Source of the DNA: Puteibacter caeruleilacunae
GTDB taxonomy: Bacteria; Bacteroidota; Bacteroidia; Bacteroidales; Prolixibacteraceae
NCBI GenBank assembly: GCA_005217565.1
Contig: SJCO01000004.1
Span: 62,001 to 126,000 of the forward strand
Direction: 5' to 3'
DNA: 64,000 nucleotides
Position numbers and translations under genes: made by a program. The notes under the pieces were generated by a model. It was not told the DNA's origin, did not search any database, and was given only the letters and a program-made list of their open reading frames with translations. Below are positions 58,746 through 64,000 of the stretch, piece after piece (position 1 is the stretch's first letter; every line of letters begins with the position of its first letter).

Positions 58746-60150
58746 CTTGTTTTGAGAAAATATCAGATCCAGACAAAACCGAATCTATTGTTATTAATTT
58801 TTGTTTGCTTATTATTTGAGATCCTATCTTTTAAATCTCTTGCTGTAGTTCTTTGATTTTTGAAAATACTTCTGGGAAAGCTATCCGAGCGGTTTTGTTA
58901 TCAGCTTGATACAGCTCCGCCTCCTCAGTCCCATTCTTCTACAGTACTGTTATTCGTTTTTTTGAGTATATTTTATTCTAAAGTAAGCCCAACAGGTTAA
59001 TTAAACTACTTTCGTAATTTAACATTCTGCCGGGCTTACATATATAACAGTGTGGGGCCCTCAAGCCACTACCCCCCCAACTGTTATTCTGTTAAAGTAT
59101 TTGAGTTTCAACCCAAGTCATAAAGGGACCTTCCAGAATCCTCCAACTTCTAACCAAGTATCAGTCTTCACCTTCTTCTCCAACTTCATTAGACTTCTCG
59201 CCTACTTAAAATATGTTCATATCTTCCCCGGTGCACCAATATTTTGGCACATCATCCCGATTCCTTCTTACTATTTTAAAAATGATATTTCCGACTAGTT
59301 TATCTTCTTCAGTTAGGCTCTCTCTCGTATCAAGTCGAAATATGATTATCCTCATTTTTTTCGAGTACAAAAGAAGCAAAATATGGGTGAACGGTCAACT
59401 TTTCTGGGTAAATTATTTGTAAACTTTAGTGAGCGTAGCGTTTTTGTCAGTAAACGTATTGTTTTACCGAATAATAGTAGCAGTTTAACAGATATTCGTT
59501 ATTGCATTAAATGTATCCGCAATGTTAATTATTAAGTTTTCCTTCTCTTAACGTTAGTTATTCCTAAAATTTTGTTATGATTTATAATAATTTCTAATTC
59601 ATACTTATTTCCAAACAAATACACACATATACTTAGTTGCATATAATATTTCTTTACTTTTACAAAGAGAAATCCCCTTGCTTTTTGGCATTATCTGCTA
59701 ACTAAAAAGTGTGCTAGTTTGCTTTGAATTTGCAGTGATCTTTATTGACATCAACAACATCAAACAATTGATCAATTCTGCATCATGAAATTACTGTATT
59801 TTTGTTCATTTTTTGCATCGTTCTTCATATCACTTGATGAAGCCCTGCTATGCTTTAATGAAGAGGCGATTTTTAAAAATAAAAGAAGTAACGAGGCCCT
59901 GCCGGTTATGTGGTAAATGGTAAAAGGTGGAAAAACCGACAGGGCAAGGTGAATATCTTTATTTTGTTCAAATCTTTAAATATGCATCAAGTGGTTTTGA
60001 CGATGGCAAATGTACAACATAATGTAGCTTTATAGATAAATAGAGGGGGTCGTTATGACGAATGACGGTTTTGGAGAGATTAACGAACGGATACTATTGA
60101 TAAAAGCACATTATTATATGATGAACGATTGTTGGAATTGGTTGTTTTAT
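58746..60150. other. 1.4-kb non-coding region upstream of the polysaccharide locus
   Basis: No convincing gene. It contains a GTAAGCCC/GGGCTTAC inverted repeat (58983-59039), an adjacent hairpin ATAACAGT/ACTGTTAT with an inner GGGG/CCCC stem (59044-59087), and a 12-bp, one-mismatch stem GCCCTGCCGGTT/AACCGACAGGGC (59896-59945) whose loop holds a family-delta purine string. The first two face the minus-strand locus and could be leader or attenuator structures. No NusG-like (UpxY) gene and no ops/JUMPstart match were found. Confidence 0.55.
58983..59087 (-). promoter_or_regulatory. Two adjacent hairpins in the polysaccharide-locus leader
   Basis: On the minus strand the hairpin 59087-59044 (ATAACAGT stem with G-rich/C-rich inner stem) comes first, then GTAAGCCC/GGGCTTAC (59039-58983) with a 41-nt loop, about 240 bp before the first gene. 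A role in attenuation is inferred from position only. Confidence 0.35.
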
Positions 60151-60267
60151 GGTATTTCCGCCAACAGGAAAGGTAGTGCGTTGTAGGTTATGGGATGAAA
60201 TGGCGGTGATGGAAGATGCTGTTAAATTAATCCCATGATTCGCTAAAGCTCATCATGGGCAAAAAAG
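60151..60267. repeat. Left ~117-bp direct repeat flanking the TIR-NACHT gene
   Basis: Begins GGTATTTCCGCCAACAGGAA and ends in the CCCATGAT/ATCATGGG hairpin plus GGGCAAAA. A closely similar copy in the same orientation is at 62344-62460. The stop codon and last codons of the TIR-NACHT gene lie inside this copy. Confidence 0.8.
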
Positions 60268-60286
60268 AAAATGTCCCGCTGGGACA
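60232..60286 (-). repeat. Two-hairpin repeat, family alpha, copy 2
   Basis: On the minus strand: TGTCCC/GGGACA hairpin (60272-60286), T-rich spacer, then CCCATGAT/ATCATGGG hairpin (60232-60259). Confidence 0.6.
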
Positions 60287-62079
60287 CGCTTCGAGGTTAT
60301 AAAGTTAAAATCATCAACCACAGCGTCGTACTTTTGTGCATTGAGGAAATGCTGAGGCATATGCTTCAAGGCGTAGGCTCTATTATCGATAGTCATCCCC
60401 TTCTTTGCAATCATCTGATCCCCGTCAACACGGTCGACAAAGTACATGTCTGATCTTTCTTCATCAAGCAACCAGTCGTACAGCGACAAATGAAATGGCA
60501 CAACCTTGTCGTTACTATTGATCGACAACATCGATCCCATGGCTTTTAGGAATTTCTTCAACTTACGCTTGTTCCAATCCAACAGTCCTTGCAGTTCTTC
60601 TGCAGTCATCGGCTCATATACCGCCAACAAGATCGACAATACCGGTAAGATATCGTCTTCATACATATCTTCATCAGGAAATCGGGATAAGAAATACTGA
60701 CTGTAAATCCCACCTAATCCTGCTGGCAACTCTGCAGGTGCATTTTCAGCAAAATGATCCTTATTGATCACCTCGCACACATAAGCAACATAAAGAAACA
60801 CCCCTTCCGATTTATCGAGAATCTCCTTTTTCAACTGAGCATATCCAGGATGCTTGCAATAACCACTCAACCGCTTGTCGATGTAACTACTGATATCTGC
60901 CATGTTATCGACCGACTCGGTATCTAATCGCCATGGCTCAAAAGCCTGCAATGGCAGCATCACTTCAGCATCAGGGCGACTGGTAACAATTAGGCGCACC
61001 CACTCAGGAAGCTTCTTGAACTCGGAGCCGAGAAACTGAGCGATCACATTCTTGCCATCGCGACTAGCCTCATCGAGTCCGTCGATCAATATCACGATCT
61101 GCTCATTGCTTTTATTCTGCTCGCGACTCAGTGGTTGTACAATCAATACATCAAAAAGGGCCACCTCATTGCATCGGGCAAGCTCTTTCTGAATATCTAT
61201 CTGGATTAACCTTTCGCGATAACCAGGAAGCTGCGTACATAATTGAAAGGCTATTGTACACACCAGGCAATGCGCCGAAGCCTTCTCACTATCTCCCCGC
61301 TTACACAAATGAAATGCCGCAAGATTTGGTAGCTTATTGATGAGATTACTGGCAATGGCCGATTTTCCTGTACCTGGCAGTCCAACCAGCCAGAACAGCT
61401 TACTGGCATCTTGATCGCCCAGCCATTGATTGATCCTCTCCTTCACCCACTCGCGACCGGTATAATATGCTATATTATTTCGCAGATCCGCACTAAAGTC
61501 GAGCGGCTCCAACTGGTTACTTAAAGCATTGGTCACGCCTGTCTCGTTTAAGAAACTCTCATTCTCGAGTGCCTTACAGATCTTTTCAAAGTCATGAACC
61601 AATGTATCGGTGATGTGCAGTTTATTATCTGAGTTTTGTAGATCGAGGTACTGCAAGCGATAGATCGACAGCGGTGGTGTTGCCCACACCAGCATCACTG
61701 GCACAATTTGCATGCTATTATCCAGTGCTTTCGCAATTTCATTCAAGCAATAACCTTTTGGTCGGCGTACCGAGTGCGGTGTCATGATCAATAAAATGCG
61801 GCCCCGACTTTTATCTTCGCCTACCCATTCCAATCCTTCTTCGATGTAGCGTTCCCACTCGGTTCCATCTTTCAGTCGCTCTTCATCGAACCACACTTCG
61901 TGATCTCTTGCCTTTAGCTCATTCGCCACATTCTTCGCAAATCCCATGTATTCATCGTGACCGTAAGAGACGAAGACACGGAGGGGGGGAGGGGGCTTCG
62001 GGGGAGGTTGATTGGGCGGTGGTGGCTTCGAGGATGGTTGGTTCTTTGGCTGCTGCAGCTGCGGCTGGCTCTTTTGCAT
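60253..62079 (-). CDS. TIR-NACHT (STAND) signalling protein, possibly C-terminally truncated
   Basis: 608 residues. After a Gln/Pro-rich leader (1-32) comes a TIR domain (about 33-165: LRVFVSYGHDEY, WFDEERLKDGTEW, and candidate catalytic E114 in YCLNEIAKAL), which in active family members cleaves NAD. A NACHT NTPase follows with Walker A GLPGTGKS (233-240), Walker B VILIDGLDEA (329-338) and sensor TSRPD (366-370), then a winged-helix-like region to ~560. Relatives usually continue into WD40 or TPR sensor repeats; here the frame ends inside a repeat copy soon after that region. Such STAND proteins act in phage defence or regulated cell death. Ala/Pro tracts upstream raise a frame question (see 61952-62215). 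Confidence 0.85.
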   Translation of the reverse strand: MQKSQPQLQQPKNQPSSKPPPPNQPPPKPPPPLRVFVSYGHDEYMGFAKNVANELKARDHEVWFDEERLKDGTEWERYIEEGLEWVGEDKSRGRILLIMTPHSVRRPKGYCLNEIAKALDNSMQIVPVMLVWATPPLSIYRLQYLDLQNSDNKLHITDTLVHDFEKICKALENESFLNETGVTNALSNQLEPLDFSADLRNNIAYYTGREWVKERINQWLGDQDASKLFWLVGLPGTGKSAIASNLINKLPNLAAFHLCKRGDSEKASAHCLVCTIAFQLCTQLPGYRERLIQIDIQKELARCNEVALFDVLIVQPLSREQNKSNEQIVILIDGLDEASRDGKNVIAQFLGSEFKKLPEWVRLIVTSRPDAEVMLPLQAFEPWRLDTESVDNMADISSYIDKRLSGYCKHPGYAQLKKEILDKSEGVFLYVAYVCEVINKDHFAENAPAELPAGLGGIYSQYFLSRFPDEDMYEDDILPVLSILLAVYEPMTAEELQGLLDWNKRKLKKFLKAMGSMLSINSNDKVVPFHLSLYDWLLDEERSDMYFVDRVDGDQMIAKKGMTIDNRAYALKHMPQHFLNAQKYDAVVDDFNFITSKRVPAGHFLFCP

Positions 62080-62215
62080 TGGCAGCTGGAGAATGGTCTG
62101 AGGTTTCTGTTGCTTGGATTGCTGATGCGATTGGGGCTGCCACTTGCATTACTGAATGGTCAGCGTTTGCGATTTCGCTCACATGCTTATCCTGTTGATT
62201 GTTTTTTGAGTTCAT
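61952..62215 (-). other. Alternative N-terminal frame joined to the TIR-NACHT gene by a C7 tract
   Basis: An 87-codon ATG frame begins at 62215 (MNSKNNQQDKHVSEIANADH), runs through an Ala-rich segment and a Pro-rich stretch, and leaves the TIR frame only near a run of seven C on the coding strand (61983-61989). Loss of one C there would fuse it to the TIR-NACHT frame, giving about 653 residues. It may be the true N-terminus with a slippage, a phase-variable switch or a sequencing error. Confidence 0.45.
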
Positions 62216-62343
62216 TAGGCTAATAGTTATTGGTTGTCATTCACCGCACCAGCGGTCATCCAAAAATAACGAACACATCGATAAATCACAATAATTGGTT
62301 GGAAAAGGGGGAAGGCTTCTCCTGATTCAATAATCTTGCCTCT

Positions 62344-62460
62344 GGTATTTCCGCCAACAGGAAAGGTGGTGCGGTGGAGGTTATGGGATGCAGTGGCGGT
62401 GGAGGAAGATGATGCATTCATTGTCCCATGATTCGTTGCACTTATCATGGGCAAAACAGA
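62344..62460. repeat. Right ~117-bp direct repeat flanking the TIR-NACHT gene
   Basis: Same orientation as 60151-60267, starting GGTATTTCCGCCAACAGGAA and ending with the CCCATGAT/ATCATGGG hairpin. It lies about 130 bp upstream of the alternative start at 62215. Confidence 0.8.
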
Positions 62461-62479
62461 GTGCATACCTCCGGCATGC
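62425..62479 (-). repeat. Two-hairpin repeat, family alpha, copy 3
   Basis: GCAT/ATGC hairpin around ACCTCCGGC (62463-62479), T-rich spacer and CCCATGAT/ATCATGGG hairpin (62425-62451). It overlaps the end of the right direct repeat and is tandem with copy 4. Confidence 0.6.
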
Positions 62480-62503
62480 TGTTGCTGATTGTGATCTGGA
62501 TAT

Positions 62504-62555
62504 CCTATGATTCGCTGCGCTCATCATTGGTAAAAGAGTGCACACCTCCGGCGTG
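62504..62555 (-). repeat. Two-hairpin repeat, family alpha, copy 4
   Basis: GCAC/GTGC hairpin around ACCTCCGGC and CCTATGAT/ATCATTGG hairpin with one mismatch. It is a tandem, diverged copy of 62425-62479, offset by about 79 bp. Confidence 0.6.
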
Positions 62556-62600
62556 CTGAGCGTTGATGTTATGAAATTAGATCAGCAACATTGGAGCTTT

Positions 62601-62653
62601 GTCACGGATGTGACATTTTCTTTTTAACCCACGACAAGGCTACGAGTCGTGGG
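62601..62653 (+). repeat. Two-hairpin repeat, family alpha, copy 5 (opposite orientation)
   Basis: GTCAC/GTGAC hairpin, ATTTTCTTTTTAA spacer, then a perfect 8-bp CCCACGAC/GTCGTGGG hairpin (62628-62653). Confidence 0.6.
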
Positions 62654-62683
62654 ATTATGCGATCACAAACGGGAAACACCGTC

Positions 62684-62789: not shown

Positions 62790-63116
62790 TTAATCTTTAA
62801 TACACCTTATCCACATTCCTAGTTTCTTACTTACCTCATTTTTACCTATCCTACTTTTATCATAAGCAATAAATCTATAATAAGCGGTAGATCCGGTAGT
62901 CAGACTCTCTCCTCCCAAATAATTTACGAACTCATCCCGCCCTACATCGCTTGGTATATACCATCCTTCCGGACATATTCCGTGCACACCTCTTGATCTA
63001 CCTGAGCTGCTAACTGATCCGTTCATGACTACCAACCAATTATATAAAACACCGTAACTCGCGTTATTCTGAACACTATGGCTATAATAACAAAAAGCCT
63101 TGTCTGTACTCGTCAA
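62790..63116 (-). pseudogene. FISUMP-domain protein remnant
   Basis: About 108 codons with only a TTG available as start and a stop just upstream. The middle (SYGVLYNWLVVMNGSVSSSG, GICPEGWYIPSDVGRDEF) matches the Fibrobacter succinogenes major paralogous domain found in secreted Bacteroidota proteins. The end (YYRFIAYDKSRIGKNEVSKK then MWIRCIKD) matches its C-terminus, but about 60-70 residues normally between these parts are missing, as is the N-terminal signal region. It is therefore read as a decayed fragment with an internal deletion. Confidence 0.65.
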
Positions 63117-63272: not shown

Positions 63273-64000
63273 TTATAACCTGGCACTATCGCAACTACAA
63301 CTTATCAAAGCAAACTTACCATCGCCACAATTCACCTCCTGCCCAATCAGTTTATCTACTCCGACAATCTTTGCTTGTTTAGCAAAACACTTCTGCCAAT
63401 CATCATCATTCGTGAAAATTTTATTCTTCCCATCATCCATATCTGCCACATTCAAAAAACCCAGATACATCAACACCACAGGAATACTCTTACTAGCCAA
63501 CCACCAGGCATGAGCGACCCTATTCGAAAGTTGATAACACTTATCTATTGAAATATCCACCTTACCGTAAGAATGGGTTATTCCCACTTTTGCCATTTCA
63601 ATTGCCTTACCAATTTGCTCATGATTTCTCCTACTAGTATCAGAAGCATCCTTTTTCAGCTTCTTCCCTGCTTTATGTAATTCACCCACATGCGCTTTAA
63701 CCTCTACAAGAAGGATCCCGTCCTCACCACCTATTTTACATTCAGAGATTAAATCCCAGTTAGGTGTTCTAAAACTTTTTCCACCCACACCGAACCACCA
63801 TTCACTAACTTCGTCTGCAATTTTAGGCGCTAATGCAGAAAAACTAGTCTTCCTCAAGAATGTCTTCAACTCAACTTCCTTCCCGCCATTCTCTTTATTA
63901 GGAAAATATACATCATCCTCAGCAATCTTAACTTCCAGCTCTAGACCAACCTCCGAGAATGATGATTTAAGCAATTTGTTAATCTCATCACAATAAGAAT
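63273..64000 (-). CDS. Hypothetical protein with PD-(D/E)XK-like motif, 5' end outside the window
   Basis: At least 241 residues; the frame is open to the last base, so the true start lies beyond 64000 (a TTG at 63974 is the only candidate inside). No family is recognised with certainty. NWDLISECKIGG followed by ILLVEVKAH has the D-x(n)-E-x-K pattern of restriction-endonuclease-fold nucleases. A following segment reads SDTSRRNHEQIGKAIEMAK. The C-terminal half contains several Trp and Cys. It sits beside a TIR-NACHT gene, so a defence role is possible but unproven. Confidence 0.6.
   Translation of the reverse strand, partial: SYCDEINKLLKSSFSEVGLELEVKIAEDDVYFPNKENGGKEVELKTFLRKTSFSALAPKIADEVSEWWFGVGGKSFRTPNWDLISECKIGGEDGILLVEVKAHVGELHKAGKKLKKDASDTSRRNHEQIGKAIEMAKVGITHSYGKVDISIDKCYQLSNRVAHAWWLASKSIPVVLMYLGFLNVADMDDGKNKIFTNDDDWQKCFAKQAKIVGVDKLIGQEVNCGDGKFALISCSCDSARL

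What the first reader, a model, noticed from the sequence alone, without database searches (positions are those of the whole stretch)
60151..62460. TIR-NACHT gene bracketed by ~117-bp direct repeats
Two nearly identical same-orientation repeats (60151-60267 and 62344-62460) enclose exactly one gene, a TIR-NACHT STAND protein. The gene's final codons and stop lie inside the left repeat, and its usual C-terminal sensor repeats are missing. This could be a cassette that moves or excises by repeat recombination, or a truncation created by the repeat. With a possible PD-(D/E)XK nuclease next door, it is the best candidate for an undescribed defence-type unit here.
Basis: partly seen in the sequence, partly recalled or inferred. 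Interest (0 to 1): 0.65.

Follow-up and report, generated by a model that had tools for sequence, protein, structure and literature searches.

The report
Hairpin repeats truncating a TIR-NACHT gene
The two repeats are scattered copies of a small hairpin-bearing DNA element, one of which forms the cut-off end of a bacterial immune-type gene, and they lead to a broader result: transposase-like genes of a kind listed as having no such repeats are usually surrounded by short hairpins of one recognisable form.

Summary
The repeats are real (83% over 120 bp with gaps, E 2e-28) but are not a cassette boundary. They belong to a modular, hairpin-bearing, REP-like family with at least 48 matches in this genome, mostly beside unrelated genes and densest around a Y1 HUH TnpA gene about 8.6 kb away. 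The left copy encodes about the last 11 residues and the stop of a TIR-NPHP3_N-wHTH protein. Three good homologues run at least ~220 residues further, two into WD40 repeats. Codon preference also switches frame near the start. I read the gene as degraded, not as a new defence unit.

The repeats led further. The TnpA has the Y---Q--HH signature of 'subclass 1.2', listed in print as without REPs. A hairpin rule (RNNNC/GNNNY stem, 3-nt loop) drawn from 30 loci was tested on new ones. In 79 named loci it occurs at 3.5/kb within 500 nt of tnpA and 0.19/kb beyond 1 kb; 50 of 62 loci have two or more, against 1 of 56 controls. Flanking repeats, mostly direct, are enriched too. Spread beyond tnpA is clear here and in one of three relatives sampled. 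That TnpA acts on the hairpins is inferred.

The parts
60253..62079 (-). Truncated TIR-NPHP3_N(NACHT)-wHTH gene, 608 aa in the open frame; lacks the C-terminal region that follows in homologues
   Evidence: Pfam TIR_2 1.8e-16, NPHP3_N 4.7e-27, HTH_TANC1 2.8e-10; alignment with 3 homologues
60150..60287 (+). Left REP-like unit: module A (TTCCGCC...GGCGG), module B (8-bp stem hairpin CCCATGAT...ATCATGGG), module C (triloop hairpin GTCCC-GCT-GGGAC)
   Evidence: R1 match at C100:122231-122287 = window 60231-60287, E 9e-19; the only RNNNC-type triloop (stem GC>=3) in the 64-kb window
60253..60288 (-). Repeat-encoded tail of the TIR-NACHT ORF, RVPAGHFLFCP plus TGA stop
   Evidence: direct reading of the sequence against the repeat units; the same GHFLFCP end closes an unrelated ORF, L009 12366-12716
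62343..62654 (+). Right REP-like array: A-B-C unit at 62343-62479, a second B-C unit at 62503-62556, an inverted unit at 62600-62654
   Evidence: C100:124424-124479, 124503-124556, 124600-124654
61952..62215 (-). 87-aa ORF in another frame, probably the original N-terminal part of the TIR-NACHT gene, separated from it by a frame switch at a C-tract (about 61980-61995)
   Evidence: codon preference +0.24 and +0.37 per codon in this frame against -0.56 and +0.01 in the TIR frame upstream of the tract; the TIR frame is at +0.18 after it
62790..63116 (-). 108-aa FISUMP (Fib_succ_major) ORF between the repeat array and the next gene pair; probably a partial gene
   Evidence: Pfam PF09603 2.8e-12, best stretch at profile positions 33-90 of 187
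63273..64000 (-). Neighbouring ORF (258 aa in full, runs off the window), PD-(D/E)XK-like by eye; about 70 bp from a 1576-aa AAA_16-like NTPase, so it more likely pairs with that gene than with TIR-NACHT
   Evidence: no Pfam hit for the 258-aa protein; AAA_16 1.1e-5, below cut-off, for the 1576-aa one

Best explanation
The 117-bp repeats are copies of a dispersed, modular, REP-like hairpin element. Its family is densest around a single-strand-DNA (HUH, Y1) TnpA gene of subclass 1.2, about 8.6 kb away on the same contig. One unit lies at the 3' end of what was a longer TIR-NACHT(NPHP3_N)-wHTH-sensor gene: the sequence that followed residue ~597 is gone, and the repeat now encodes the last ~11 residues and the stop. 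The most likely history is insertion of the unit, or a deletion ending in it, with loss of the sensor; the gene is probably degraded. Shown: the repeat family and its dispersal, the repeat-encoded tail, the longer homologues, the clustering around tnpA, and, across Bacteroidota loci examined, the association of subclass-1.2 tnpA genes with RNNNC-NNN-GNNNY hairpins and flanking repeats. Inferred: that TnpA cuts and moves the units, and that the TIR-NACHT product no longer works as a sensor.
For: At least 48 model matches in the genome at E<=0.01 (150 of 3845 candidates scored), 43 of them at E<=1e-5, both strands, 11 contigs; 8 of the 43 lie within 1.4 kb of the tnpA at C100:132691-133158. Weak single hits in only 6 of 60 related genomes, under stricter filters. 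Only two Y1_Tnp genes found in the genome; the second (55% identical) has its own repeat family with 44 genome matches, the best of them around that gene. Homologues G149 and G156 have TIR_2, NPHP3_N and WD40 repeats, and the 34%-identical paralogue runs to 817 aa, where ours ends at DDFNFITSK plus repeat-encoded residues. A second gene (C204:245414-246658) likewise gets its last codons and stop from a unit. Subclass-1.2 association: flanking repeats E<=1e-10 in 17/30 loci (13 genomes) vs 1/36 controls, in 12/29 new loci (all direct) vs 0/20, in 23/62 named loci (20 with a direct pair, 4 with an inverted one). RNNNC triloops within 500 nt: 2.8/kb in the 29 new loci, 3.53/kb in 79 named loci vs 0.19/kb beyond 1 kb in the same loci and 0.09/kb in 56 controls.
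Against: The two TnpA loci of this genome have only one perfect triloop each within the flanks held, so the family studied here is a weak example of the general rule. The long direct repeats were not dispersed in three relatives sampled at 20 x 20 kb each; short hairpin units were clearly dispersed in one of the three. The hairpins do not carry a canonical GT[AG]G foot. No empty site and no TnpA activity could be tested. 13 of 30, 17 of 29 and 39 of 62 tnpA loci show no flanking repeat pair at E<=1e-10. Some loci are not independent (L049/L058 are one tandem duplication; L153/L157 nearly identical proteins).
Confidence: 0.75

Rival explanations
1. The repeats bound a mobile or excisable defence cassette: recombination between the two direct copies inserts or removes the TIR-NACHT gene.
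For: Two same-orientation copies enclose exactly one gene; 83% identity over 120 bp could in principle support recombination.
Against: Units occur singly and in arrays beside many unrelated genes; better matches to the left copy than the right copy lie around tnpA (86% at C100:131397 against 83%); one copy invades the coding sequence instead of bounding it.
Confidence: 0.06
2. The short TIR-NACHT-wHTH protein is a natural, functional sensor-less form, and the repeat only overlaps its stop by accident.
For: The 608-codon frame is open with TIR, P-loop NTPase and wHTH intact; REPs supplying stop codons to flanking ORFs are described (PMC3733652, section 15 read).
Against: The 3 good homologues found are longer and two of them are alignable up to the junction; codon preference indicates a frame switch near the N-terminus; no homologue with this end was found among 61 related genomes (E<=0.001) and 395 of the phylum (E<=1e-20), where good matches were few (3 of 395, own included).
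Confidence: 0.15
3. The hairpin enrichment near subclass-1.2 tnpA reflects generic intergenic features such as terminators, and tnpA simply sits in repeat-rich intergenic DNA.
For: Control stretches were taken without regard to coding and are probably mostly coding; in G076 the RNNNC triloops also occur in other intergenic regions (0.77/kb of intergenic DNA, TnpA window included).
Against: The excess is specific to 3-nt and less so 4-nt loops and to the RNNNC stem (3.53 and 1.38/kb against 0.40, 0.21, 0.07 and 0.12 for loops 5-8); intergenic rates were 0.08 and 0.38/kb in G192 and G012; locus-specific flanking repeats accompany it.
Confidence: 0.15
4. The repeats are ends or decay products of an IS200/IS605 insertion sequence, not a REP-like system.
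For: TnpA matches Y1_Tnp (1e-23) and transposase structures in the PDB (2xm3, 1.7e-7; that these are IS200/IS605-type is recalled).
Against: Two diverged copies (55%), each with a different repeat family; modular arrays in place of two fixed ends; Y---Q--HH signature of a subclass described as not sharing IS properties (PMC6006769).
Confidence: 0.1

Closest known systems
REP / BIME elements and REPtrons with TnpA_REP (RAYT), class 2 of the TnpA-Y1 classification (PMC6006769; PMC2817692; PMC3733652)
   Same: Short dispersed, mostly intergenic hairpins in arrays and on both strands; densest at a low-copy HUH Y1 tnpA gene; each tnpA with its own repeat family; units supply stop codons to neighbouring ORFs.
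   Different: TnpA here is Y---Q--HH (class 1, subclass 1.2), not Y---NP; no GT[AG]G foot at the hairpins; flanking repeats often long (about 56-476 nt) and mostly direct.
TnpA-Y1 subclass 1.2 (PMC6006769)
   Same: Y---Q--HH, WQ, about 150 aa, low copy number, Bacteroidota.
   Different: That paper's Table 1 gives 'no' under REP and its text calls the subclass generally without typical terminal IS200 structures; here most loci have hairpins of one form, and about 37-57% have flanking repeats.
TIR-STAND/NLR-like conflict proteins with NACHT and WD40 repeats (Avs and bNACHT systems recalled; PMC7159879 seen only in a search listing with the start of its abstract)
   Same: TIR, NPHP3_N/NACHT, TANC-type winged helix; homologues G149 and G156 carry WD40 repeats.
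   Different: The window gene has lost the C-terminal region; PADLOC matches are weak and partial (best E 3.9e-8, Avs1b).

Membership tests
REP elements (canonical) | palindromic hairpin unit | tested here: met
   8-bp and 5-bp stems in modules B and C
REP elements (canonical) | dispersed, mainly intergenic | tested here: met
   at least 48 matches; of 40 mapped units 2 overlap an ORF >=120 aa
REP elements (canonical) | GT[AG]G tetranucleotide at the hairpin foot | tested here: not met
   by inspection of the units printed; GTAG occurs in module A, not at the foot of B or C
REP elements (canonical) | usually more than 100 copies (PMC2817692, start of abstract) | tested here: inconclusive
   48 (150 of 3845 candidates scored) and 44 (40 of 48 scored) matches are lower bounds, in a draft of 220 contigs
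REPtron (TnpA_REP class 2) | tnpA flanked by its own repeat family, copies elsewhere in the genome | tested here: met
   both tnpA genes of this genome; in relatives dispersal was shown in 1 of 3
REPtron (TnpA_REP class 2) | Y---NP motif in TnpA | tested here: not met
   Y---Q--HH instead, in both own genes; Y---Q--HH in 30/30, 29/29 and 76/79 loci (the pattern also allowed N for Q, but all printed motifs have Q)
TnpA-Y1 subclass 1.2 | Y---Q--HH and WQ motifs, low copy number | tested here: met
TnpA-Y1 subclass 1.2 | no associated REP-like sequences (as published) | tested here: not met
   the published statement is
IS200/IS605 insertion sequence | several near-identical copies with fixed ends | tested here: not met
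   two copies, 55% identical, different flanking repeats
TIR-STAND (NLR-like) defence protein | TIR effector plus NACHT/STAND NTPase | tested here: met
TIR-STAND (NLR-like) defence protein | C-terminal sensor repeats | tested here: not met
   ends at the repeat junction; no remnant by tblastn in window 55-64 kb
TIR-STAND (NLR-like) defence protein | NADase activity and phage protection | not testable with these tools
   needs a bench test
Repeat-bounded mobile cassette | repeats specific to the cassette | tested here: not met
Repeat-bounded mobile cassette | empty site with one copy in relatives | not testable with these tools
   no strain close enough among those searched

The most novel reading that the evidence does not exclude
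Subclass-1.2 TnpA genes, so far described as neither insertion-sequence nor REP-associated, are the enzymes of a separate REPtron-like system widespread in Bacteroidota. Each TnpA processes its own family of triloop hairpins (RNNNC-NNN-GNNNY, often in direct-repeat modules); in some genomes the units spread, and here one reached and cut short an immune-type TIR-NACHT gene.
Probability: 0.5. Interest if true: 0.62.

Novelty: new variant of a known kind. Interest (0 to 1): 0.5.

Why it matters
For the gene, it warns that an apparent repeat-bounded defence unit is a REP-like truncation. For the repeats, it gives a set of 'orphan' HUH proteins (108 of 395 genomes sampled across the phylum have a relative at E<=1e-25) a likely DNA substrate, which can be tested directly with purified protein and short hairpins. 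It would also extend REP-type biology to class-1 TnpA proteins.

Tried and rejected
Cassette reading: rejected because the repeat is a genome-wide family. Looking for the lost C-terminus downstream: tblastn of three homologues against window 55-64 kb gave only the known gene and chance hits. Close relatives of the TIR-NACHT gene: none in genome contigs by single-protein scan, none in viral contigs, only partial 22-31% matches in 6 plasmid records. REP B-core by regular expression near 28 relatives' tnpA genes: 0 of 28, so this repeat family is lineage-specific and the general link had to be sought by structure. Dispersal of the long repeats in relatives: negative in 3 of 3 genomes at the sampled depth. 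Rfam was not searched and no structure was predicted: not needed for the question. One search's printout of the Y motif was wrong for many rows (first match in the protein); one search replaced it. One search stopped with an error on an orientation check after printing the control result and was rerun.

Papers: PMC6006769 sections 12, 17, 18 and passages; PMC3733652 section 15 and passages; PMC12306157 one passage; PMC2817692 and PMC7159879 only as search listings with the start of the abstract. That a REP link of subclass 1.2 is not in print rests on Table 1 of PMC6006769 and on the searches in an open-access library only.
Full report
OBSERVATION. The two repeats exist at 60150-60268 and 62343-62460, same orientation, 83% identical over 120 bp with gaps (E 2e-28) and 89% over the first 72 bp. 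Between them lies one gene, 60253-62079 (-), whose 608-aa frame matches TIR_2 (residues 35-151), NPHP3_N (213-368) and HTH_TANC1 (466-586) in Pfam. The stop codon and last codons are inside the left repeat. 'Nearly identical' is too strong, and the repeat is larger than stated: the left unit runs to about 60287 and the right copy is the first of an array to about 62654.

WHAT THE REPEAT IS. The window is C100:62001-126000 of a 7.97-Mb, 220-contig genome, not named by the tools. The repeat has 18 DNA matches there. Compared units show modules: A, TTCCGCC...GGCGG; B, an 8-bp-stem hairpin CCCATGAT...ATCATGGG; C, a small hairpin such as GTCCC-GCT-GGGAC or a GTGC...GCAC variant; and an inverted B-type hairpin CCCACGAC...GTCGTGGG. 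A covariance model of B+C built from 21 units finds 48 matches at E<=0.01, 43 of them at E<=1e-5, on both strands and on 11 contigs. Only 150 of 3845 first-look candidates were scored, so 48 is a lower bound. Among 60 related genomes, under stricter filters, 6 have a match, single and weak (best 3e-4). I mapped the surroundings of 40 of the 43: only two overlap an ORF of 120 aa or more, in both cases at its 3' end: the TIR-NACHT gene, and C204:245414-246658, whose last codons (YPTTH and stop) are unit-encoded. The rest lie between genes of unrelated kinds or in short, probably spurious ORFs.

THE tnpA LINK. Eight of the 43 units lie within 1.4 kb of a 155-aa Y1 transposase-like gene at C100:132691-133158, about 8.6 kb from the TIR-NACHT gene and 6.7 kb beyond the window end. 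One other Y1_Tnp gene was found in the genome, 9.6 kb further on and 55% identical. That gene is bracketed by its own 445-nt direct repeat (84%), whose family has 44 matches in the genome, the best ones next to the gene. So there are two tnpA genes and two separate dispersed repeat families.

THE TRUNCATION. On the minus strand the ORF reads ...DDFNFITSK and then RVPAGHFLFCP-stop; the last stretch is translated from modules C and B, and an unrelated ORF ends in the same GHFLFCP. Three good homologues were found: a paralogue in the same genome (34%, 817 aa), G149 (35%) and G156 (33%). All three continue at least about 220 residues past that point; G149 and G156 carry WD40 repeats there (Pfam 6e-47 and 4e-22), while no Pfam domain was reported in the last part of the paralogue. 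No remnant of the missing part was found in window 55-64 kb, so loss of the sequence, not simple insertion, has occurred at some stage. Codon preference adds a second lesion: upstream of a C-tract at about 61985 the coding signal is in the frame of an 87-aa ORF (+0.24 and +0.37 per codon against -0.56 and +0.01), after it in the TIR frame (+0.18). An assembly error in the tract is possible. I conclude that the gene is degraded or at best de-regulated; a working sensor-less form is not excluded.

FOLLOWING THE tnpA FAMILY. The TnpA carries Y---Q--HH and WQ, the signature of subclass 1.2 in PMC6006769, which reports low copy number, Cyanobacteria and Bacteroidetes, and 'no' in its REP column (sections read). 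I asked whether other loci of this family have repeats. In 30 loci (2 own, 28 from relatives), all 30 have the motif. Seventeen, from 13 genomes, have a repeat pair flanking the gene at E<=1e-10 (nearly all direct), against 1 of 36 control stretches from many of the same genomes (Fisher p 6e-7). The repeat families differ between loci by inspection. Their common feature is a hairpin with a 5-bp stem and a 3-nt loop: 2.28/kb in the flanks against 0.59/kb in controls and 0.37/kb after shuffling, while loops of 4-8 nt stay at 0.67-0.88/kb. Of 174 such hairpins, 166 begin with a purine, 160 close with C, and 133 lie within 500 nt of the gene, giving the rule RNNNC-NNN-GNNNY.

HELD-OUT TESTS. In 29 loci from a phylum-wide sample: 29/29 have the motif; 12/29 have flanking repeats, all direct, against 0/20 controls (p 6e-4); 103 of 119 triloops fit the rule (loop 4: 42 of 65; loops 5-8: 3/40, 7/45, 5/30, 3/31). 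In 79 named loci, nearly all titled Bacteroidota or allied groups (the best 80 of 575 confirmed, less one duplicate): 76/79 have the motif. Rule-fitting triloops stand at 3.53/kb within 500 nt against 0.19/kb beyond 1 kb in the same loci (4-nt loops 1.38 against 0.10). At least two are present in 50 of the 62 loci with both flanks, against 1 of 56 controls. Flanking repeat pairs occur in 23 of 62, 20 with a direct pair and 4 with an inverted one. On a tree of 59 TnpA proteins the flanking-repeat label needs 16 changes, at least 12 on well-supported branches, so it is not one lineage's trait.

RESULTS AGAINST. The two loci of this genome have only one perfect triloop each. In three relatives (G192, G076, G012; 20 x 20 kb each) the long direct repeats were found only at the tnpA window. 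Short hairpin units were clearly scattered in G076 but not in G192 and not convincingly in G012. Intergenic DNA of G076 has the rule-fitting triloops at 0.77/kb (TnpA window included), so some background exists. Control stretches were not restricted to intergenic DNA. Many loci lack flanking repeats (13 of 30, 17 of 29, 39 of 62), and some loci are near-copies. The canonical GT[AG]G foot is not met; copy number is inconclusive.

MECHANISM. By analogy with REP systems, an HUH TnpA would recognise a small hairpin in single-stranded DNA and cut and rejoin beside it; arrays would arise by repeated insertion or by slippage between direct modules. Binding and cutting are inferred. For the TIR-NACHT gene the unit acted as a genome lesion, not as a part of a defence system.

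VERDICT. The finding as given is an ordinary REP-like truncation of an immune-type gene. What it leads to, a regular hairpin and repeat association of subclass-1.2 tnpA genes, appears undescribed in the papers I could search and is the part worth following.

Noticed in passing
L009 4273-5049 and 5119-9849 (C100:125273-130849; the first runs into window 63273-64000): A 258-aa ORF with a D...EVK (PD-(D/E)XK-like, by eye) motif sits about 70 bp from a 1576-aa AAA_16-like large NTPase, same strand, no PADLOC match at E<=0.01: a possible two-gene conflict system unrelated to the TIR-NACHT gene.
   Followed up: partly
L103 (C150:438617-454915): The longer TIR-NACHT paralogue lies directly after a 1227-aa ORF with a P-loop-like motif and a run of ORFs that look like a type I restriction system (all by eye): a likely defence island, with units of the same repeat family about 17-25 kb away.
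   Followed up: no
window 61952-62215 and C-tract near 61985: Codon preference switches frame at a C-tract inside the proline-rich N-terminal region of the TIR-NACHT gene: frameshift, phase variation or assembly error.
   Followed up: partly
L009 12928-15612 (C100:133928-136612): Four consecutive ORFs of about 150-213 aa, some alike by eye; the one scanned matches DUF6266 weakly (E 0.002, below cut-off).
   Followed up: no
L231 489-705 and L227 9528-10650 (G076): Hairpins about 50 nt apart, often with TTCTAC or GTAGAA roughly 8-10 nt from the stem; similar words occur in G012 and L060. Might correspond to the GTAG guide of canonical REPs; not tested.
   Followed up: no
L049/L058 (G026): Two copies (identical proteins) of a subclass-1.2 tnpA in a 1.3-kb tandem duplication (97.5%), each within direct repeats: possible recent amplification by repeat recombination.
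   Followed up: no
window 62790-63116: A 108-aa FISUMP-domain ORF that looks like a partial gene beside the right repeat array.
   Followed up: no
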